A DNA stretch of 10,825 nt from Candidatus Sumerlaeota bacterium (lineage in GTDB: Bacteria > CG03 > SLGR01): NCBI GenBank assembly GCA_007136585.1, contig SLGR01000181.1, forward strand, positions 1-10,825, in the 5' to 3' direction. Shown piece after piece: positions 1-10,825 of the stretch. Within the stretch, counting starts at the first letter, position 1, and each line of letters begins with the position of its first letter. Made by a program: the position numbers and the translations under genes. Under the pieces are notes generated by a model. That model did not search any database and was not told the DNA's origin. It was given only the letters and a program-made list of their open reading frames with translations.

Positions 1-756
1 CTCCGGACCCGCGGTTACCGGACAAGGGAGGAGAAAAGGCTCGAAAAATACAGGGAAATCGCGCGGGACTGGGCTGATATATTCACCGCCGAGAACGAAC
101 TGCCTTTCAGGGTTTACGGCGGGGTGGCTGAAGGAAGGTACGGTAAGTACAGGAAAATAAAGGAAAAGGAGTGGCCGGCGCTTAAGGAATCCCTGAACCG
201 GGAGCTTGAGCGGCTGGGGTTTGAACTTATCCCTGAAGGAGTAAGCAGGGTAGGGCAGGCCGTAATAGACCGCTATTTCAATGATCCCGTAAGCATAGGC
301 CTGGCAAGAGGGGAGCTCCTATTAAGAGACTCTCACGTTATACGGAATCCTTCATACGACCCGGTTGATGAGATACTGGATAAGGTTATCCGCTCCGCTG
401 AGGAAGCCCTTAAAACCGCTTCGGTCATAAGCCGGCTGGAAGGGCACGCGGAGTTTGAGACTGTCGGCGGGGCGGGGAGGTACCTGGTGCAGCGCGGGCA
501 CCTTGAGATATCCTCCGGGTACGCGGATCTCACTCTTATGAGGGATATAGATACCGGCGCGATTGTATACGGAGCCGCTTACGAGCGCGTTATCAGCCCT
601 GAGGGCGGGTATATGAGCCGCTCCCTGGACGCTTTCCAGCTTCAGCGTCTTCTTGAGCGCGAGCGCTACGAGACCGGTCCTCCGGTCGCGGTTACCCCTG
701 CCCGGAAGACCCTCGCTGCCGAAAAACTCTACGCCGATCCGGATGAGGATATTACC
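1..756 (+). other. Unassigned segment before the swivel domain (residues 1-252)
   Basis: I recognise no family here. The first 75 residues are highly charged and look helical (many Glu, Arg and Lys). Residues about 78-250 are mixed alpha/beta with well-formed hydrophobic strands, for example GLARGELLLRDSHVI at 100-114 and a Tyr/Gly-rich part at 155-206. It runs straight into the swivel domain with no obvious low-complexity linker. In glucan/water dikinases the part before the His domain carries substrate-binding modules, so this could be a substrate-binding region. That is inference from position only. Confidence 0.5.
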
Positions 757-3700
757 GGTCTCACGATACGCGGCCTTGCCGCTTCAAGAGGGAGCGGGAA
801 CCCCGTTTCCGGAAAACTGACTTTTGAGCCTGTTGCTTCAAATGAAGAAAACAGGATTTACGCCGCGCCTTTCACCACACCGGATGATATTTCAACCATC
901 AAGAATTCGCTTGCTGTTCTCACTACGGGGGGAGGGGTTCTCTCCCATGCCGGGATAAGCGCAAGGGAATTTGGAATTCCCGCTCTTATAACCCCCTCTC
1001 TCATATGGAAGGAAGAGGGAGATGAGAAGCGCCTTGAAGGCACCCTTACCCGCCCCGCCGGGTACCGTCTTAATGAGCGCGGGGTATGGGTTTCCGGGTC
1101 TCTCTCTGAGAGAAGGTTCACCCTGCGTGAGGGTGATATCATAACAGCTGACGGAGCTAAAGGGGCTCTTACCCCGTATACCGGAAGAGTATCGGAGGAT
1201 ATAAAGAAGGTTTTCCGGCATATTACGGGCCTTAGAAACTTCTCGGGTCTGCGGAGAAGTATTTCTCTCTGGAGGCTTCTCAGGCAGATACGTTCCGCGG
1301 AGAGTTTTGAGGTTCCGCGCTTTGTACTGGACGAGCTTACTTCCCGCGGAAAGATTGATGATATCTCCCATGCGGAGAGAGTTATAAGGGCTCTCAGCCG
1401 GAACCGTTTTCTCTCAGAGGAGTGGGAGAGTTACCGTGAGGCTATGATGAAAAATCTTCGCCGGCAGGCGGCGGCCCTGGTGGAAGGTTTCAGGGAATCC
1501 CTCCCGCACGAAGCCTCTGATATATCCCGGATAGATAACTTAAGGGAAAGGAGTTTAAGGGAACTTGAGAATATCCGGAGCCTGGCCCTGTTATTCTCGG
1601 GCGGATCCGAGCTTACAGATTTTCCCGGCGGAGAGGTTATAGACAGGATCTCACTTAAAAAATCCCTGGAGGTTCTTGACCGGATCCACGGTGAAATGGA
1701 CAGGGTGATGACGGAAGAGGATACTTCTCTAAGGCGGCTCAGAATACTCGCCCGCCGCGCTTCCGGAAGCAGGGAGGCGGCGGAATCTTTAAAGAGAAGT
1801 GATTTTATAACCGCGCTTGAGGAATTAGAAGGCCGGTTAAGGGAAGTTGAGACTGTCAAAAGAAAGGCCGCTGAAAGAGAGAGGCGTAGAATAATACCCC
1901 TTTCGGAACTTGATGAGGATCTCACGCGCATTTCAGGGGGAAAGAACGTAAAACTGGGGATGATAAAATCGGCCCTTGACGCAATAAGAGAGAACCTTGA
2001 CGAGACGGGGCTTTCTCTTGAGGTGCCCGGAGGGTTTGCTGTTACAACCTCGGCCTACACTGATTTTCTGGAAAATAACGGGATAAGGGATGAGGTGGAG
2101 CGCATCGCTTCCGATAAGGATATCCCGGCCCGGGAGAAAGCCCGCAGGATCCGGGGCCTGATACTCGGGGCTTCCTTTAACACAGGAGAGGGGCCCGGAA
2201 AAGAGATACTGGAGGCCTTTGATAAATACCTGAAAGAATCCCGGTCCGAGTACTTCGCTGTGCGTTCATCCGCCGTTCAGGAGGATACCTCGGAGGCTGC
2301 TTACGCGGGCATGGGAGATACCCGTCTCTATGTCAGCAGGGAAGGGCTTCTTGAGAGTATAAAGGAGGTCTTCGCCTCCGTCTGGAACGAGAGGTCGATA
2401 CTTTACCGTCGGGAGAAAGGTGTGGAGCCGATGGATGTCCGTCAGGCTGTGCTGGTCCAGGAGATGGCGGACTCGGAGATATCCGGTATAGTATTCAGCG
2501 TTGACCCCGTGAGCGGAAGCTCCGGACGAGTGCTGATAAACGCTTCCTGGGGGCTCGGGGAAGCTGTAGTCTCGGGGCTGGTGCAGCCGGACCAGTATAT
2601 TTTGTCAAAATCTTCCGGTAAAGAAGTTGAACCCCCTCTTATAGGTTCAAAACGGGTTAAGATAACCCGTAAAACCTCAGAGCCCGGCACAAAGACCGCG
2701 TATGTTGACAGGGAGTCACGCCTGGCCCGGGCTTTAACACCCGGTCAGGCGGAAGCCCTTACAGCCATCGCTGCCGCCCTGGAGGAATTTTTCGGAACCC
2801 CGCAGGATATAGAGTTCGGTATAGCTCAGGATAAGATATATATTCTACAGTCCAGACCTGTAACCGCCTTAACAGAACCCGGGGAACCGGATGTACACTA
2901 TCAGAAACACCCGGCTGCTGCAAGAATCGCTTTTCCGGGAAGCGCCTTCTTCAGGGAGGTTTTCCGTTCAGTCCCCGCTCTGGTAAGAACTGCTTTCCGG
3001 CGCCTTCTGAGAAATGCTGCAGCGCTATACGGAAACCTGGCAAGGGATTACCGGTATAAGAAGGTTCTCAGGGAAATAAACAGCTACTCTGATACGGAAA
3101 TAAACTTAAGCGCGGCTATCAGAAAAATTGATCCCGATAAGCTTAAGGCCCGGGCCGCTAAACTTAACGAGTACCTCATTCCGGTAACACCCGTAACACT
3201 GCGGTATACTCCGGAAAATCTCATCCGCAGACGCGCCATACTCCTTGAGGCGGAGTTGGAGATTTCTGCAGAAAATATCACCCGGCCCCAGCGTCTCTAT
3301 GACGAAATATCCCTGCTTGCCGGGAAGGGGTATTCACCCCGTCTCCTTAAGATACATTTTGAGAACCTGAAGTATTTTAAAAGGTTTTCCGAGACAGAGT
3401 CGGAGAAAGCCGGAGAGCATTTTATAAGGCGCATTCCCAAAATGCTTGAACTGGTGAGTTTTATTCAGAGAGCCGCCGGGTTTCCCGACGCGATTAAATT
3501 CGACCTGCTTAAGATATTTTTAAGGGAAGATTTTTTAAACCGTTCCGGGGACCGGATTCAGAGGCTGCTTATTCCGGGTAATATAAGCGAGATTAAAGAG
3601 GGTTCTCCCGAAGAGGAAAAACTTTTAAAGTACCTCAAAAGGCACGAGAACGGCAGTATAAGAAAAGCGGTCTTCTCCGCTTTAAAGCACCGGGAATATT

Positions 3701-6700
3701 CCACGGATGAGATAAGATTTTATGAACCTGAGGATATAAGCGGAGATTCATACGGCTTTTCCCCCCGCTCCGGATTCTCAGGGCTGATCGAGCGCGCCCT
3801 GCATAAGGCGGGACTGATCAGAAAAACCGGGCCCGAAGAGATGTCTGTTCCCGACGCCTACTCGGACCTGGCCTACAGTAATGTTATTAATTCCCTGTTA
3901 GACGAACTTCGTAATCATAAGATCTCCGGCGAAGTTAAAAATCAAACAGGCGGGGCCGGGTTAAGGGTTAAACTCACCCGTGATCCGGCGCTTATTCAGC
4001 GCGGAGAGTTAAACCCCTTATCCCGGTTTCAGAAAGACTCCGCAAGCGGGGAACTGGTTCTATATGTGCACCAGGCCTTTATGGAAGCTCTTAAGAATAA
4101 GGCGCCCCCGGCGCAGAAGCGCCTCATAAGCCTCCTGGCCTCCTATAACCTCCAGGAGTACCTGCACCGCATAACGAACCTGGGGTACCCCGATGAATTT
4201 TACAGGGATAAACATAAAAAATACAGAGAACTATTCAGTTTTACGGGCGTTCTTTTAAAAACCTACCGGCGTTACGGGATGGAAGGGATAAGGACTGCGC
4301 CGAAAACAATCTCCAAAACCGTAAGGCACGGGCGGCGCGGAAGATATGATATGGAGCTGACCTCCTGGAGCGGCGCCGGGGCGGTTAACAGGATTCTGGA
4401 GAAGGAGAAGCTCGGCGCTATAGTAAGAGAGGCTCTTGAAAAGAACAGGAAGATATACGCCCAGCAGATCTCTTTCAAACCCACATTTATTGCCGTAACA
4501 GGCGGAGAGGCCGGGGAATCCCCCGAACTCTTTTCTGAAGCGGTAAAGGAGATAATCCTATCCGCCGAAACGGGTATCTGGGCCCTGGCGGTCAGGGAAG
4601 ATCTTGTAATTGATATAAGCGATCCTGAGTCTCCCAGGGTTTACGCCGGTGAATCCGCCCTGAGAAAAACCTCCCTTGAGAAAGAAGTCGCTGATCTTAT
4701 GAGAAGGATAGAGGGAAAGAGGAAGGATATCTTTAAGGGAGATAAATACCTTAAGGAATCTATTATTGAGGAGGCTGATGGTGTTGAGTTTTTTAAGGGC
4801 AGGGTTCTGAAAGACTCTCCCTACCCCGCAGCTATCGGGGAAAGCTCCCGAAGCGGTAAAAAGATTCTGGTAACTGGGGAGATAAGGCAGGATGAAGCCG
4901 AGGCCCTTATAGAAGACCTGAAAATGCTTAAGGGGAGAGTCCTGGAAGGGCTGGGCAACGTGATTATTGAACTTAAAGACGGAAAAATTACCGTAAAATC
5001 GGATATCGGATCCGAACGGGACCTGGAGATTATAAGGGGTTTTACTGAAGGGTTTACAGAGATCATAGCCATATCCGATACTCACCTTGCCGCCAAAGGA
5101 GGGGAGGATACGTTCGGGCCCGAGAAGGAGAAGGAACTGATTGAATTCCTTGACCGGGTAATTGAAAACCGGAGCCTTCTTCTTATTAACGGTGATTTTC
5201 TGGAGCTGTGGCGGACTAAATACGGGCATATAAGGCGCTCCTATGAAATGCTTTTTGATAAACTCAGGCAGGTCAGAAAAATAGTGTACGTCGCGGGGAA
5301 TCACGACTGGGACGTTCTTGAAAGTGTTACTGACAGAAAAAGAGCCGAGGCCCTTGCCGCAGCAAAAGAAAACCGGTTCCGGGGCGCTGTTTTCTACGAT
5401 CCCCTCAGCGGAAGGCTGAGTATAGAGGAGGGGAGTTCCTCAGAGTACGCCGGACTTCTTGAACTTCTTAATAAACCCGGGGCTCACGGAAGCAGGGTTC
5501 TTGAGAAGCTGAAAGAAGAGATCAAAGACGGGTTTCGCATTATATTGTCACGAAAATTACCCGAGCCGGGAATAGCGCGGGAAAACGGGGTTTTCTACCT
5601 GGATAAGAGTCTTCTGGGAGAACCCGAAGCTTCGGAGCGGATTTATAAGATGATTGAGGATATACAGCAGACTCTTAACAGGCGTATAAGAGAGGATCTT
5701 CCCAATATTGAGATACTGCCGGTTTATCTGGATGAGTACCGCGGCCTCTACTTTGAGCACGGCCACCAGGGGGATTCCTTTAATACCAGCCGGAGCTGGG
5801 TGGGGCAGATGCTTGCCCAGGCAGGGAAATGGGGCGGGCGCCTTGGCGCTCTCCTGGGATGGCATACCGCCGAAGAATCCGTTACCTACGTTCTGATGAA
5901 ACTGGGACAGTTCTTTCTGCCGGGTATACTGGTAGGAAAGAAGAACTACATAGGGAGACTCCTGGGCGTGGGGAAGATGCTCAAGTGGTACGGGATGGAG
6001 AGGGGTCTTGAGAATAAAGAATGGAATTTATTCCACGGGCATACCCATATCCCCTACGCTCCGGGAGAGGGACATATAAACACATTCTTAAAAGGTTTCG
6101 CGGGGTTCGTTCACGGCAATACCGGCACCTGGACCTCATACCCCCACAAGAGGCTTTCCAGGGAGATAAAATACGGCCTGGGTCGTGACGCTTTCAGAAT
6201 AAGCTACAGCGGGGAGATGACCCTTCACAAGGACGGCGACATAAGCAGGAAACGCCCCCTTGGCCTCTTCCCCCGTATGGCCGGGTTTCTGACATATATG
6301 TTCGGTAGAGACTATCTTGAGTCACACCCCGTGAGCGCCATACTTACAGGGGCCTACTTTGAGGGCGTCCTGCTTTCGGGGTTCTCGGCTCTTATGATAC
6401 CCGCTCTCTTGGGGTTTGCCCAGCCTCTTATGGTATCCCTGGCCGCTGCTCTTATTCCAGCTATTGTATTTGCCGCTCTTCATACGGAAGTGTTTTTTGA
6501 CATACGGGGGAGCCCCGAGAAAGTATGGGGGCGTTCCCTTGGAGAGTCGCTTACAATTCTTACCCCGATATTCATACTGGGATATTTAATGAGCGCGCTG
6601 CCCCTTTCTCTTATGTTTCTTTTTTTCCAGCCATCCCAGGGTTTCGCTGCCGGAGCCATAATAGCTACCGTCTCGCATGTTCTCTATAACCTGTGGGCCC

Positions 6701-9700
6701 AGTATGGCAGTATCAGCCTTCCCCTGGCGCGTATTTCGTATGGCCGGGTAATTGAATATTTCCTTGAATATGCTCTCTTTCCGCTCTCAGTTATGCTGAA
6801 GAGACCTTCACCCCGCGGGGTTCAGGATCTGACTGAGAATATTGAGGTGAAAAATTTAAAACAAGACTTAGTAATAGCGGGATTTTATGAAGAGCAGGGT
6901 CAGGAGATAACTCAGAGAGATGTAGAGTATTTCAGAGGCAGGGGTTTAAATACGGTGGGTGAAGTAAGGGAATTGATACAGGGGATAGGAAAGAAGACCG
7001 GCCCGGCTTTCCTGAGATATTTTATGCGTGGAATTATTGGCGGAATGTACGGAGCAGGACTTGGAACTATTGCGTCCTGGGCTTTTCCAATATTATTTCC
7101 TGTCTTATCAATGCCTTTTTCAATGCTAATCCCGATTATGGCAGGAATGGTCGGGTTTCTTGGAATTATACCTCCGAGGCTGCGGATGCTGACGCCCGGC
7201 GCGAATGAGTATGCTATGCAGCTCTATTTAAGACCTATATATGGTATTACAGACAGAATTCTTGGTGCTCTTGGGAAAAGTGACCCCATAACACCTAACG
7301 ATTTATTTAGGAGTGCGATAATACGAGAACATATTGACGCAAAATATGGGCGCAGGCCTGCAGCTCAGGATGTAATTACCTATATAGAGGCGGGGTTCAA
7401 AACAGTGGGAGATATAGAGGATTATATTACTAAAGAATCTGCGCTAAAAGATATAGAGAAAAAGGATATTGCCAAAATTAAAGGGATAGCTGATAAAGAA
7501 CTTCTTGAAAGACTTAAGCGCGAGAGGGATAAAACAGAAGAAAAAATATTCACTGACACCGAAGAGTTATTAAAGTATTTTTCACCGCTTTTAGTTACAG
7601 AAGATACTGAAGAACAGCAGAAAATTAAGGAGTTTTTCCCGGAAATTTACGGATATCTATATCCTGCTGAGATGCATCTTAATTATGACCTTGAGCAGGC
7701 ACTGCCTGGCAGGGAAAAGAATCTTACATTTGTAAACCATATTTTTGATCGGGGTTTTGGGAGAAAGATATTAGGATTAGAGCAAGGAGATATAAAGATA
7801 TTCCAGGAAGAAACTTCCTTATCCGAGAGTTCCTTTAACCGTGCACTCCGGAAATTTAATGGGTTAGAGCAGGCAGGCCTTCTTCCTTATTTTCGTATCG
7901 CATTTCTTTATCACGATATTTCGAAAGGAGGAGTTGCTGAGCAGCGTTCGTCTTGGTCAAAGATTAAAGGCATTGATATGCTTATCGCCAATGAGGCAGC
8001 CAGTTTAATCCTGAAGAATTTTGCGGTTCCGGGTTCAGATCGTACCGGGCTTTTTGAAAATATTGAATTTCTCAGGGAAAATCCGGATTCTGAGTTGTTG
8101 AATGAGTTTTTTTACAGGCTTATTGCATTGCGGGGTTTTCCAGGGCAGTGGATACGCGGGGAAGTAACATATGATGTATTTCAGGGTTTTACTGACTGGG
8201 TAAGAGATAATTTCAAGGAATTAAAAGAAGTATTTGCTCCTGAGGCTGAAGATGAATTAGCCAGCCAGCGGATCGCCGATATAGTGTATCTTTTTAATTT
8301 TATAGATACCGCTGCAGTGAGAGAAGGCCTTATGACCGACGAGTTAAATAAGAAATTCCTAAGATTCTTTGAAGATTTTAAAGAGGTCATCACTCCGGAC
8401 AGAGGCCAATTTTCTGTAGATTGGCAGGATATTTTTAACAGGAGCTGGGAGAATCTGTCAGATATTGGGGCTAAGCGCAGTTATTTAAAGGATCGCCTTG
8501 GGCGGTTTAGAACAGAGAGGAGAAAATTAGGCGAAGATCCGGAAGAACTTAACCGGGTAATTGACTTTATGGATGAGAAAGTTATAGACGAATTGGTAAA
8601 TGTTCTTGAGAACTTCCAGGGTTGGCATATAGAATCAGCCACCTCCGGACTTACACCTGCAACCCAGATAAAACTCATTGTTTTAGGTATTGTCCTTGCA
8701 GAGCACAGGGGTGTGGATGCTTCCAGCGTTTTTCACATAAATTTCTTTAATCTAATGAAGGTTCTGGCTACAGGCAGGCAGCAGTATAACCATTATAAAC
8801 TAAGAATTGTTGAAGCATTTCTTAGAAAATTTTCATTTGAAGATATTTTATTTGACCAGGAAACATTAAAGATCTTTGATAAAAAAGAATTAATAGAAGA
8901 AGTTAGCCCTTTAATAGCATTGGATATGGAGATCGATGGAGACAAAGCTATTTCCTTTGACTTCAATTTAACAGAAGAGGCCCAGAGCTTACTAAGTTTG
9001 GTTGCGAAATATGAGATGCAAAATTCAGTGAAGTTTCATCAGGCGCTAAAACTGCTTCTAGATATTTATGGGTTAAGGAAGGACGAGTTTGACCGTGTGA
9101 GCAACGAGATGCTCTATTTGGAGACTATGGAGGCAGGCAGGAATGATAAGTCCAGGTTAGCAGGATATGCGAAAGGACCCACTGTTGTAGACATAGGGCC
9201 GGCTGGAGGAGCTATACTGGGTATACTTGAGAATAATAAGGATAAACAGAATATAGAACGGATAGTAGGTGTGGATATTTCAGAAGAAGCTCTTAATGAT
9301 TTAAAACAGATGAAAAGAAAAAAGGGCTGGAGCAGTGTGGAATTAGTAAAAGGAGATGCCTATGAGTTGGGAGAAGTTTTAGATAATGCCGGCATTTCAT
9401 CTCCTGATACTATAATATTCAGTTCAGTGCTTCATGAAATCTACAGTTATATAGAAATAGATGGGCAAAAGTTTAATATTGAGTCAGTAAAGGACTTATT
9501 AAAGGAATCTTTGCGTGTGCTTGCACCTGACGGCAGGATTCTGCTTCGTGATGGCGTCACACCGGAAGACGGCGATGAATTCCAGATTATGGAACTGTAT
9601 GGAGAAGAGAATAAGGAAATTTTTGATAGTTATGTAAATAACTTTGAAGGCAGAGTGATTGAATATGAAGTTATTTCAGAGGATAAAGAAAATAATACAT

Positions 9701-10825
9701 GGCGCATTCGTATTCTCCGCAAAGATGCTATGGAGTTTTTATATACACTGACTTGGGGACCTGAAAGTTTCCCCTATGAAGTAAGAGAACAATATGGAGT
9801 TTTAACCCGGAAAGAATATGTAAAACTTTTCCATGATTTGGCAGAAGAACTGGGAGTTCAAATTAATGAGGTGTCTCTTCCTGAAGAAGAGCAAAGTTAC
9901 TTACAGCAGGGGTATTATAATAACCTGATTAAAGCAGGTAAAGCGAAACTTTTTGATCTGGATGGTAAAGAAGTTTCCTTACCCCCGAGTAATATGATGA
10001 TTGTAATTGAGAAATCGGAAGCAGTTGAAGAACCTGCTGGCGAAGAGCAGTTTAGGGTAACTCCTCCATACGCCGGTTCTACGGAAGGAAAGGTCAATGA
10101 GGCTATACTTGATGCGTACAGTAGCTGGAGTTCAGGGGATATAACGGCAGAAGCGGCCGCCCGCCTGGTATTAACGGCCATCCTTAATATGTCAGCAGAC
10201 GAACCCGATTACATAGTAAACCTTGAAACAGCCATAGGGCTCTTGAGAGAAGCCGGCAGTGAATTTGGCACTTCCCGTCAGGTGCTGGAAGAATACCTTA
10301 AAAGGAAAGACCACGGCGGGTTAAGGGATGCCCTTAGCGCGCTCCTGGAAACCGCCGCCGAAACCCGTCCGGATGCTGTGAGCGCAACCGGGATAAGGGA
10401 CCTCGCCCATTCTGAGCGTCTCTCCTTAAGGGAGGCAAGGTACCTGGAGACCCTTGCCCGCAGTCTCCCTGCCGGAAAAAGGGTCGGGATAGAGCGATTT
10501 CTTGAATCAGAGAAGGGGTTTGCCTCTCTCCTTGAGAGCGATCTTGGTGATATAGCCGCGGATCTCGGAATAGAAAACATAAAACCCGGCAGAGGTTCAT
10601 CTTACAGCGACGGTATCCTGACCCTTGAGAGGGGGCTCCTTAATAAACTGGGGCTTATGAGCCTTAATATGGAAGATAAGGCCCTTATCAGGCTCATAAT
10701 CGGAGCCAAACTCGCCTACGAGAAGGCCTCGGATGCTGCCGCCGGGGATAAGCGCCTGCTGACCAGCCTCTATCTTTCAGAACTTGAGGATATCTCAATG
10801 AACCTGGAGGGCCTTGAGAGCGGTA
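1..10825 (+). CDS. Giant multidomain protein, internal fragment open at both ends
   Basis: Frame 1 reads without a stop for 3,608 codons plus one leftover base. I translated every line by hand and found no TAA, TAG or TGA in frame; tryptophan is always TGG, so no recoding is needed. The start and stop lie outside the window, and the true protein is larger, by an unknown amount. Domains in order: phosphohistidine swivel (about 253-397), PPDK-type ATP-grasp (631-957), metallophosphatase (1686-2082), CPBP-like membrane block (2105-2268), membrane hairpin between two copies of a short motif (2300-2478), HD domain (2575-2785), SAM methyltransferase (3041-3240) with extension. Intact catalytic motifs in most of these argue for a selected, expressed protein rather than chance openness. 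Residue numbers here and below count from base 1, not from the real start. Which giant protein family it belongs to is unknown; an Omnitrophota-type giant ORF is my best guess. No promoter or RBS is visible because the 5' end is missing. Confidence 0.96.
757..1191 (+). other. Phosphohistidine swivel domain (PEP-utilizing enzyme mobile domain)
   Basis: Residues 253-397. The signature is TTGGGVLSHAGISAREFGIP at 308-327, matching the PEP synthase/PPDK pattern TxGGxxxHxAIxARExGIP. The expected phospho-accepting histidine is residue 316 (CAT at 946-948). The domain opens with RGLAASRG at 257-264, like the usual GxxASpG strand, and closes with REGDIITADGAKG at 376-388, like the usual DGDxVTVDGxxG. 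In this family the His carries phosphate from the ATP-grasp domain to a substrate site. An extra stretch of about 35-45 residues (331-374) sits between the GIPALI strand and the closing motif, where E. coli-type PEP synthase has only a short loop. The key residue is present, so activity is plausible; the substrate cannot be told. Confidence 0.85.
1192..1890 (+). other. Charged helical linker between swivel and ATP-grasp domains (residues 398-630)
   Basis: About 230 residues rich in Arg, Glu, Leu and Ser with heptad-like spacing, notably at 490-530 and 595-630 (ending in KRKAAERERRR). I see no catalytic motif. It probably forms long helices or coiled coil and separates the phosphohistidine domain from the ATP-grasp domain, as a swivelling domain requires. 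No family was recognised. Confidence 0.6.
1891..2871 (+). other. PPDK_N / PEP-synthase type ATP-grasp domain
   Basis: Residues 631-957. It starts with a typical N-terminus: PLSELDED, then the glycine/lysine motif GGKNVKLG (646-653), then VPGGFAVTTSAY. The core motif is VRSSAVQEDTSEAAYAG (754-770), equivalent to VRSSAxxEDxxxxSFAG. Next come ASVWNERSILYRREKG (about 792-807), SGIVFSVDPVSG (828-839), NASWGLGEAVVSG (847-859) and QPDQYILSK. The end is GTPQDIEFG (932-940) and IYILQSRPVT (946-955), with the metal/ATP-contacting acidic residues and the Gln-x-Arg of the family. In PEP synthase, PPDK, Rph and glucan/water dikinases this domain binds ATP and phosphorylates the swivel His, releasing AMP and phosphate in several members. 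All key motifs look intact. Unlike PEP synthase, it lies C-terminal to the His domain, and no PEP/pyruvate TIM barrel follows. Confidence 0.92.
2872..4320 (+). other. Long helical unassigned region (residues 958-1440)
   Basis: About 480 residues, mostly predicted helix by eye, rich in Leu, Lys, Arg and Glu, with no motif I can assign. It is clearly not the PEP-binding barrel that would follow in PEP synthase. Residues about 1350-1420 hold the pattern LVLYVHQAF, then LISLLASYNLQEYLHRI, then DEFYRDKHKKY. Its layout recalls a zincin-like protease helix but lacks an HExxH. Codon use and GC content match the flanking dikinase and phosphatase parts. No function is proposed. Confidence 0.55.
4321..5055 (+). 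other. Unassigned alpha/beta region before the phosphatase (residues 1441-1685)
   Basis: This part alternates strands and helices: SFKPTFIAVTGG (about 1491-1502), GIWALAVREDLVIDISD (1525-1541), KKILVTGEI (1620-1628) and NVIIELKDGKITVKSD (1653-1668). It looks like one or two small folded alpha/beta domains. The last strands lead directly into the first strand of the metallophosphatase at residue 1687. I do not recognise a family and see no nucleotide-binding loop. Confidence 0.5.
5056..6246 (+). other. Calcineurin-like metallophosphatase domain
   Basis: Residues 1686-2082. All metal-binding blocks of the family are present in order: IIAISDTHL (D1693, H1695), LINGDFLELW (D1732), VAGNHDWD (N1767, H1768), FEHGHQGD (H1920, H1922) and FHGHTHIPYA (H2014, H2016). 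A typical NTGTW strand ends the core. These enzymes use two metal ions to hydrolyse phosphomonoesters or diesters. GDFLELW followed by GNHD resembles the LpxH-like and related lipid/nucleotide phosphatases, but the substrate cannot be assigned. The distance from GNHD to EHGH is about 150 residues, and about 90 more separate it from GHTH; both are longer than in compact members. The second insert includes a hydrophobic stretch at about 1961-1979 that may touch the membrane. The domain directly precedes the membrane block, so it probably acts at the membrane surface. Confidence 0.9.
6313..6804 (+). other. Multi-spanning membrane block, CPBP/Rce1 intramembrane protease-like
   Basis: Residues 2105-2268 contain about five hydrophobic segments (roughly 2109-2140, which may be one long or two short spans, 2142-2161, 2184-2209, 2213-2232 and 2248-2266). 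They carry FEGVLLSGF (E2121), FAALH (F2157, H2161) and SHVLYN (H2226, N2230). CPBP/Rce1 glutamate endopeptidases show EExxxRG, then FxxxH, then HxxxN on successive helices. Spacings here are 40, 65 and 4 residues, close to the family's usual values as I recall them. The catalytic Glu and both His plus Asn would be present, but the second Glu of EExxxR is Gly2122 and the Arg is Ser2126, so the motif is degenerate. It could be a divergent active protease, a dead protease or only a membrane anchor. Confidence 0.5.
6898..6984 (+). repeat. Protein-level repeat copy 1 (DV...G..TVG motif)
   Basis: Residues 2300-2328, with RDVEYFRGRGLNTVGEV at 2306-2322. It aligns without gaps to a second copy exactly 150 residues (450 bases) downstream. 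About 8 of 29 positions are identical (G2300, D2307, V2308, G2315, T2318, V2319, G2320, I2326) with several conservative changes. The DNA itself is not noticeably repeated, so this is an old duplication or a recurring small helical motif. Confidence 0.5.
7021..7176 (+). other. Membrane hairpin inside the island (residues 2341-2392)
   Basis: Two hydrophobic stretches, about 2344-2362 (Gly-rich, with GGMYGAGLG) and 2364-2390 (FPILFPVLSMPFSML, then a second hydrophobic half), form one hairpin or two to three spans. They end at a positive PPRLRML. By the positive-inside rule, the segment after 2391 would face the cytoplasm, which suits the HD and methyltransferase domains that follow. The hairpin lies between the two copies of the short motif. 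Confidence 0.6.
7348..7434 (+). repeat. Protein-level repeat copy 2 (DV...G..TVG motif)
   Basis: Residues 2450-2478, with QDVITYIEAGFKTVGDI at 2456-2472. It is the partner of the copy at 6898-6984, offset exactly 150 residues without gaps. It is followed by a Lys/Glu-rich helical part (2478-2540) leading into the HD domain. Its role is unknown; a small helical protein-interaction or dimer element is possible. Confidence 0.5.
7723..8355 (+). other. HD-type metal-dependent phosphohydrolase-like domain
   Basis: Residues about 2575-2785. The key motif is IAFLYHDISKGG (His2638-Asp2639), matching the LLHDIGKG helix of HD-domain proteins. His2580 in TFVNHIF fits the expected upstream metal ligand, and Asp2769 in FNFIDTAAV fits the expected distal aspartate. 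Between them the chain is helical, as the fold requires. The usual mid-domain histidines are not clear: the HPxxG position reads KIKGIDMLIANEAA, and the later H is not obvious around 2707-2720. The metal site may therefore be incomplete. HD domains hydrolyse phosphate esters or nucleotides, and some are regulatory only. Family identity is moderately supported; activity is uncertain. Confidence 0.55.
8356..9120 (+). other. Unassigned helical region between HD and methyltransferase (residues 2786-3040)
   Basis: This stretch is helical and compact, with no linker-like low complexity. It contains GWHIESATSGLTP (2874-2886), IKLIVLGIVLAEHRGVD (2890-2906) and SVFHINFFNLMK (2909-2920), followed by YNHYKLRIVEAFL. 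The dense aromatic and His content suggests a folded domain that may form the back half of the HD module. I recall similar text next to HD and methyltransferase parts in Omnitrophota proteins, but cannot verify this here. Confidence 0.5.
9121..9720 (+). other. Class I SAM-dependent methyltransferase domain
   Basis: Residues about 3041-3240. Motif I is TVVDIGPAGGAILGIL (3061-3076), a variant of the DxGxGxG SAM loop with Pro-Ala in the middle. The acidic end of strand 2 is VGVDISEEAL (D3092), expected to bind the ribose hydroxyls. KGDA (3117-3120) marks the adenine-contacting loop. DTIIFSSVLHEIYSY (3136-3150) fits motif post-II with the catalytic-pocket side chains. LKESLRVLAPDGRILLRDGV is the usual strand-5/6 stretch. 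The domain looks complete and probably binds S-adenosylmethionine in the cytoplasm. The substrate is unknown. It is preceded by an acidic helix (SNEMLYLETMEAG), a typical entry to this fold. Confidence 0.85.
9721..10035 (+). other. C-terminal extension of the methyltransferase
   Basis: Residues 3241-3345. It begins with a helix and the distinctive block TWGPESFPYEVREQYG (3251-3266), then a helix-strand pattern ending in SLPPSNMMIVIEKS, which looks like a final beta strand returning to the fold. It probably completes the substrate-binding cap. The acidic, low-complexity AVEEPAGEEQ (3341-3350) then serves as a linker, and the composition island ends here. Confidence 0.55.
10036..10825 (+). other. 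Unassigned helical region at the window end (residues 3346-3608)
   Basis: After the short linker RVTPPYAGSTEG (3352-3363) the chain is almost wholly helical, rich in Leu, Ala, Glu and Arg (for example AAARLVLTAILNM and SLREARYLETLARSL). GC content and codon choice return to the style of 1-6840. No enzymatic motif is visible. It may be the start of the next linker or domain of the giant protein, which continues past the window edge. Confidence 0.55.

What the first reader, a model, noticed from the sequence alone, without database searches (positions are those of the whole stretch)
1..10825. A single stop-free gene covers the whole window
No in-frame stop occurs in 3,608 codons on the + strand and both ends are open. 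With uniform random codons the chance would be about e^-173. Domain motifs of at least five families appear in the same frame in sensible order. Bacterial proteins this long are rare and mostly surface adhesins, NRPS or PKS; this one is neither repetitive nor adhesin-like but a chain of distinct enzymes and membrane spans. Giant ORFs are reported in Omnitrophota, so this may be one.
Basis: partly seen in the sequence, partly recalled or inferred. Interest (0 to 1): 0.85.

Follow-up and report, generated by a model that had tools for sequence, protein, structure and literature searches.

The report
Giant mosaic enzyme gene, contig-truncated
The whole contig is the middle and near-end of one real giant bacterial gene, one of at least eleven related giant genes in the same uncultured genome, which string swappable enzyme modules between a shared protein start and a shared protein end.

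Summary
Observation confirmed: 3,608 codons without a stop, against 93-281 stops in the other five frames, with both ends open. The window is an entire contig (C115) of an 88%-complete MAG. It is coding throughout and shares codon usage with rpoB and with a second giant ORF of the same genome.

The 3' end lies inside a C-terminal domain that occurs in 11 places in this genome; in the paralogs it ends at a stop, so the gene probably stops about 0.5 kb beyond the contig. The start lies upstream; seven contigs of the MAG carry a shared secreted-type N-terminal domain that heads such genes. Between the two ends sit variable enzyme modules: here a PEP-synthase-like pair in swapped order, a calcineurin-like phosphoesterase, membrane spans, and an HD-motif/methyltransferase cassette. 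The cassette's GC3 is 0.36 against 0.56 elsewhere, and it is 57% identical to an Omnitrophota copy when rpoB of the same genomes is only 50%: a laterally exchanged module.

The genome is not Omnitrophota proper but a separate small phylum. Giant ORFs there and in related phyla are published. New here are the shared header (also in 170/384 Omnitrophota genomes), the shared tail and the cassette exchange. Function is inferred, not shown.

The parts
1..10824 (+). Open reading frame, 3,608 codons, both ends open: internal part and near-end of a giant gene
   Evidence: codon usage and GC periodicity; no in-frame ATG in the first 179 codons
844..1164 (+). PEP-utilising-enzyme mobile (phospho-histidine) domain, with TTGGGVLSHAGISARE at 922-984
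   Evidence: Pfam PF00391 E 2.7e-11; motif
1936..2880 (+). PEP synthase-type ATP-binding domain (PPDK_N), placed AFTER the mobile domain: the reverse of PEP synthase order; no PEP/pyruvate barrel found
   Evidence: Pfam PF01326 E 1.5e-78; PDB PEP synthases E down to 2.4e-48
3046..3666 (+). Helical module that recurs in giant ORFs of the same and related genomes
   Evidence: matches C226, C24, C85, C254, G004:C169, G001:C7 at 32-37%
4048..4179 (+). Weak match to a recurring zincin-like module (HELNEY in relatives, degenerate here)
   Evidence: i-E 0.0026; not found again at the stricter setting
5062..6048 (+). Calcineurin-like metallophosphoesterase with all metal motifs (SDTH, NGD, GNHD, GH, GHTH)
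   Evidence: Pfam PF00149 E 1.6e-6; motifs
6364..6624 (+). Membrane-span-like segments
   Evidence: hydropathy
7075..7170 (+). Membrane-span-like segments
   Evidence: hydropathy
6751..10110 (+). Segment of foreign composition: GC3 0.36 against 0.56 in the rest of the frame
   Evidence: best segment scan, z -11.3
7519..10017 (+). HD-motif/methyltransferase cassette (HD motif 7909-7926, SAM motif 9187-9210), laterally exchanged
   Evidence: NF005379 E 8.7e-100; relatives and tree
10402..10824 (+). First half of the family's shared C-terminal domain, cut by the contig end
   Evidence: 80% identity to C110; profile i-E 3.8e-39; 11 places in the genome
10489..10825 (+). 92% identical DNA in contig C110, in a reading frame that ends at a stop 515 bases further on; probable reason the assembly broke here

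Best explanation
Shown here: the window is the interior and near-end of one member of a paralogous family of giant proteins. Members have a shared N-terminal domain of about 500 residues headed by a hydrophobic, signal-peptide-like segment. A long variable middle of assorted enzyme modules follows, with hydrophobic spans and, in some members, recurring linker modules. A shared C-terminal domain of about 230-300 residues ends at the true stop. Modules are gained, lost and swapped between paralogs and across phyla; the HD-motif/methyltransferase cassette in this window is a clear case of lateral exchange. Inferred: the protein is exported or anchored in the cell envelope and works as a surface-borne multi-enzyme device in contact with other cells, with variable cargo as in polymorphic effectors. 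ATP- and SAM-dependent modules would work only on a cytosolic side, either the producer's own or, after delivery, that of a partner cell. A second FtsH-like AAA+ M41 protease encoded next to giant genes in three genomes probably extracts, trims or clears these proteins.
For: Real and coding. Shared ends: N-domain in C110, C161, C178, C24, C17, C243 and C165. C-domain in 11 places in this genome, 11 in G001, 5 in G004, one weak match in G003, none in six Omnitrophota genomes tested. A complete small member carries both domains (G001:C2 2239-5532, 1,098 aa). Synonymous change exceeds replacement change between paralog domains (dN/dS 0.11-0.40). Variable cargo: protein kinase, adenylate kinase, GH130, asparaginase, FHA, phosphoribosyltransferase-like, SecA, pyruvate kinase barrel, cation efflux. 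Shuffling: G001:C127 carries the PEP-synthase-like pair in normal order, the window in reverse order. Cassette transfer. FtsH-like protease, 77-80% identical, near giant genes in three genomes of two families; the genome also has a separate ORF that looks like an ordinary FtsH on C109 (read by eye).
Against: No contig spans a complete large member in this MAG, so the N-domain is not shown to belong to the window's own gene. Export rests on a signal-like sequence in paralogs, without a trained predictor. No expression, localisation or partner organism is known. Foldseek gave no significant match for either shared domain.
Confidence: 0.62

Rival explanations
1. An internal polyprotein or metabolon: the giant chain stays inside the cell and is cut by neighbouring and built-in metalloproteases into separate working enzymes, or holds them together as one scaffold.
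For: Cargo is largely cytosolic metabolism (PEP-synthase-like, pyruvate kinase barrel, adenylate kinase, asparaginase) needing ATP. Zincin-like modules recur. An FtsH-like protease is encoded alongside.
Against: Signal-peptide-like N-termini in paralogs and hydrophobic spans. The paralogs differ in cargo, which does not fit one fixed pathway. The C-domain lacks the HEXXH motif.
Confidence: 0.22
2. Assembly chimera: unrelated genes were joined in frame, for example at the composition steps near 6751 and 10110.
For: Composition changes sharply inside the contig; short-read-like MAG with 257 contigs; near-identical paralogs could be mis-joined.
Against: GC3 returns to the genome-like value on both sides and the frame stays open across both steps. 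The same cassette lies inside long open frames in independent Omnitrophota genomes (5,904, 1,841, 18,421 and at least 46,432 codons). Many paralogous giant ORFs exist.
Confidence: 0.06
3. A decaying gene: enzyme modules are relics drifting inside a non-functional giant frame.
For: Some modules in paralogs match only part of a family model; the C-domain is a degenerate peptidase-like fold.
Against: No stop in 10.8 kb, catalytic motifs of four enzyme modules intact, dN/dS of shared domains 0.11-0.40.
Confidence: 0.05

Closest known systems
Giant ORFs of Omnitrophota (Seymour et al. 2023, PMC10066038; e.g. Velamenicoccus archaeovorus, 39,678 aa)
   Same: Very long single frame, membrane spans, few recognisable domains, several per genome, proposed role in contact with other cells; a SecA-like domain lies in one paralog here (that most giant genes carry SecA-like domains is recalled from a preprint not held in this library).
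   Different: Separate small phylum; enzyme-rich rather than adhesin-like; members are shown here to share a common header, and in this order a common tail, whereas the paper calls them poorly conserved.
Gigantic multidomain proteins with Skillet-clade Lipocone domains in Omnitrophota (PMC12419801)
   Same: Long chain of enzymes, peptidases, methylases and membrane spans, read there as predatory weaponry.
   Different: No Lipocone domain was recognised here; different cargo.
Large secreted proteins of Auribacterota-related MAGs (PMC12057145)
   Same: Large proteins in small phyla near Omnitrophota, with a signal peptide.
   Different: Those carry beta-helix carbohydrate-active and adhesin domains and no membrane spans.
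Polyvalent proteins of phages and conjugative elements (PMC5512222)
   Same: Many enzyme domains in one polypeptide with variable composition.
   Different: 2-15 domains and carried by mobile elements; no phage record matched the cassette and the window's setting is a chromosomal paralog family.
PEP synthase / rifampin phosphotransferase
   Same: ATP-binding domain and phospho-histidine domain, both with intact motifs.
   Different: Order reversed and no PEP/pyruvate barrel found; scores far below the curated cut-offs.

Membership tests
Omnitrophota-type giant gene | Single ORF longer than 20 kb (criterion of Seymour et al.) | tested here: inconclusive
   Window 10.8 kb, truncated at both ends; same-genome paralog at least 18 kb (C226); same-order genome G003 27-40 kb
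Omnitrophota-type giant gene | Membrane spans within the chain | tested here: met
   Four to six hydrophobic segments, simple hydropathy only
Omnitrophota-type giant gene | Lies in an Omnitrophota genome | tested here: not met
   Separate clade on rpoB, 100/100 support; 16-genome phylum
The giant-protein family described here | C-terminal domain (A2) | tested here: met
   aa 3470-3606, i-E 3.8e-39
The giant-protein family described here | N-terminal header domain (A1) in the same gene | not testable with these tools
   5' end is off the contig; no overlapping contig found
PEP synthase | ATP-binding domain | tested here: met
   PF01326 E 1.5e-78
PEP synthase | Mobile phospho-histidine domain after the ATP-binding domain | tested here: not met
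   It precedes the ATP-binding domain
PEP synthase | C-terminal PEP/pyruvate-binding barrel | tested here: not met
   No Pfam hit for it in the 3,608 aa
NF005379 methyltransferase | Score above curated cut-off 602 bits | tested here: not met
   335 bits: homologous, not an equivalog
TIKI/EreA/ChaN-like fold for the N-domain | Fold match | tested here: inconclusive
   AF model pLDDT 73; ChaN 2g5g Z 6.2, rmsd 6.4, 189 of 255 aligned; HopBA1 5t09 Z 4.7, rmsd 4.2, 163 of 217; Foldseek itself not significant
Gluzincin peptidase for the C-domain | HEXXH motif | tested here: not met
   AYEK or AHEK at the likely site, read from the alignment; fold hints only: 4qhf Z 7.1, rmsd 3.2, 93 of 109; 4jiu Z 6.6

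The most novel reading that the evidence does not exclude
Giant genes of Omnitrophota and of this neighbouring small phylum are one polymorphic system: a common protease-like, exported header carries an open-ended, laterally exchanged string of enzyme cassettes, so the giant protein is a modular delivery or surface platform rather than a set of unrelated lineage-specific giants.
Probability: 0.35. Interest if true: 0.8.

Novelty: new variant of a known kind. Interest (0 to 1): 0.55.

Why it matters
Giant bacterial proteins have been treated as poorly conserved oddities with few recognisable domains. A shared header found in 170 of 384 Omnitrophota genomes and in this neighbouring phylum, a shared tail within the order, and enzyme cassettes moving between phyla would give the field a handle to find, classify and test them. 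The function of giant proteins becomes testable through the common header and the adjacent FtsH-like protease.

Tried and rejected
Omnitrophota membership: rejected by rpoB and phylum size. Fitting the window to a neighbouring contig: only the paralogous C110 overlap at the 3' end, nothing at the 5' end; contigs under 3 kb are masked, so a short linking contig would be missed. RNA elements or introns: no Rfam match in the window or three paralog loci. Phage origin of the cassette: no match in 50,697 phage records; three Bacillus plasmids carry only a 34-35% methyltransferase relative. Solved-structure sequence search for the shared N-domain and for aa 966-2100: nothing relevant. Foldseek on both shared domains: no significant match. 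Frame lengths of 70,450 and 35,113 aa reported for relatives are inflated by 72,000-base masked stretches read as N; the longest unmasked runs are 46,432 and 11,064 codons. Other long frames were not checked for masking.

Full report
OBSERVATION. Frame +1 of the window has no stop in 3,608 codons and both ends are open; the other frames hold 93-281 stops. The e^-173 figure is arithmetically right. The window is exactly one contig, C115 of 10,825 bases, of a 1.88 Mb, 257-contig, 88%-complete MAG. The frame is coding from end to end: codon-position GC is periodic in every 900-base stretch, and codon usage correlates 0.82 with the genome's rpoB against 0.26 for the next frame, and 0.94 with a second giant ORF. 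There is no in-frame ATG in the first 179 codons, so the gene starts upstream.

ANATOMY. In order: a PEP-utiliser mobile domain with its SHAGISARE histidine motif (aa 282-388), a PEP synthase-type ATP-binding domain (646-960), a helical module that recurs in other giant ORFs (about 1016-1222), a calcineurin-like phosphoesterase with every metal motif (1688-2016), membrane-span-like segments (2122-2208 and 2359-2390), an HD-motif/methyltransferase cassette (2507-3339), and the first half of a C-terminal domain (3468-3608). The first two domains stand in the reverse of their order in PEP synthase and no PEP/pyruvate barrel was found. A giant ORF of a same-family genome (G001:C127) carries the same pair in the usual order and ends in the same C-terminal domain, so the pair has been rearranged.

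THE FAMILY. The last 337 bases are 92% identical to contig C110, where the frame runs on to a stop 515 bases later, and a second giant ORF begins 0.8 kb downstream with a signal-peptide-like N-terminus. That N-terminal domain is found on seven contigs of the MAG and in three relatives of the same order. The C-terminal domain is found in 11 places in this MAG, 11 in G001 and 5 in G004, with one weak match in G003; it was absent from the other own-phylum genomes and from six Omnitrophota genomes tested. In the paralogs it ends at the stop codon, TAA or TGA. A complete short member with both domains exists (G001:C2, 1,098 aa). Tandem arrangement is seen on C110, C24, G001:C2 and G003:C25, the last with adjacent frames of at least 11,860 and 13,409 codons, unmasked. 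The middles differ: protein kinase, adenylate kinase, GH130, asparaginase, FHA, SecA, pyruvate kinase barrel, cation efflux and more. Shared domains show fewer replacement than silent changes (dN/dS 0.11-0.40).

DISTRIBUTION OF THE HEADER. The N-domain profile matches 170 of 384 Omnitrophota genomes at E <= 1e-10. In a sample of 386 genomes centred on G000 it matches 4 of 16 own-phylum genomes and 13 of the other 370 (Fisher p about 5e-44). At least one of those 13 may itself be Omnitrophota, since G684 and G069 show a match at the same contig coordinates. Species relatedness was not corrected for, so the p-value shows enrichment, not independent events.

PLACEMENT. The best relatives of the cassette in named genomes are Omnitrophota. 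However, the phylum of the MAG holds 16 genomes in the collection, and on an rpoB tree it forms a 100/100 clade apart from the two Omnitrophota genomes. The name of this phylum could not be determined with the tools; small neighbouring phyla such as Auribacterota and CG03 have published large proteins (PMC12057145).

LATERAL EXCHANGE. GC3 falls to 0.36 over aa 2251-3370 against 0.56 elsewhere (z -11.3), a stretch that contains the cassette. The cassette was found in 5 of 384 Omnitrophota genomes, inside frames of 5,904, 1,841, 2,523, 18,421 and at least 46,432 codons, and in L014 in a 1,327-aa frame. The window's copy is 57% identical to that of L014, more than rpoB of the same two genomes (50%), while L014 shares only 42-47% with the other Omnitrophota copies although its rpoB is 62% identical to that of G061. 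That is the pattern of transfer, direction unknown.

WHAT THE SHARED DOMAINS ARE. The N-domain has invariant D-H, E-G, G-E and GGFH positions. Its model (pLDDT 73) matched no PDB chain significantly by Foldseek. Re-alignment put ChaN at Z 6.2 (189 of 255 residues, rmsd 6.4) and HopBA1 at Z 4.7 (163 of 217), both, from my own knowledge, of the TIKI/EreA/ChaN kind. These scores are in the range that chance arrangements reach, so the assignment is a lead. The C-domain model (pLDDT 62, second half unreliable) put three mini-metallopeptidases among its first seven rows (Z 6.0-7.1), but its HEXXH is missing: at most a degenerate peptidase fold.

MECHANISM. Best supported is a modular, exported or envelope-anchored multi-enzyme chain with swappable cargo, acting at the cell surface or on another cell. 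Export and target are inferred. Genes for a second FtsH-like AAA+ M41 protease, 77-80% identical, lie directly beside giant-gene ends in G003:C36 and G000:C195, and one gene away in G001:C129, followed by a shared gene without a Pfam match whose N-terminus looks lipoprotein-like; in G003 HlyD, RND and outer-membrane efflux genes follow. This protease is a natural candidate for processing or clearance. An intracellular polyprotein remains a serious rival because the cargo is largely ATP-dependent metabolism.

NOVELTY. Giant ORFs in Omnitrophota and neighbours are published, with a proposed role in predation or symbiosis (PMC10066038; PMC12419801; PMC12057145). A preprint on giant genes (cited in PMC12057145) could not be read here. 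I found no description of the shared header, the shared tail or the cassette exchange in the texts that I could search, but the library is partial. I therefore rate this a new variant of a known kind.

Noticed in passing
G169:C2 80001-219298 (loci L136-L142): An Omnitrophota-phylum genome has an unmasked open frame of 46,432 codons that carries the same HD-motif/methyltransferase cassette; the tool's 70,450 aa includes 24,001 masked codons.
   Followed up: partly
L162:9001-18000 (G000:C226): A giant ORF of at least 6,000 aa in the window's own genome contains a nearly complete SecA motor, 534 bits to the SecA model.
   Followed up: partly
L165:862-10467 (G000:C123): Giant ORF with a complete pyruvate kinase barrel and a cation-efflux domain.
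   Followed up: no
L166:4206-5858, L171:3704-5350, G003:C36 (L070/L021): FtsH-like AAA+ M41 protease, 77-80% identical, encoded beside or one gene from giant-gene ends in three genomes, followed by a shared gene without a Pfam match.
   Followed up: partly
L059:2639-3412 and L171:5503-6246: A two-receiver response regulator, 62% identical between genomes, sits next to giant genes in two genomes.
   Followed up: no
L003 (C110 giant ORF) aa 1182-2659: A helical linker of about 55 residues occurs four times between domains, with weaker copies in G003 giant ORFs.
   Followed up: partly
L018-L020, L052 (G003:C25): Two adjacent giant frames of at least 11,860 and 13,409 codons fill a 76.6 kb contig.
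   Followed up: partly
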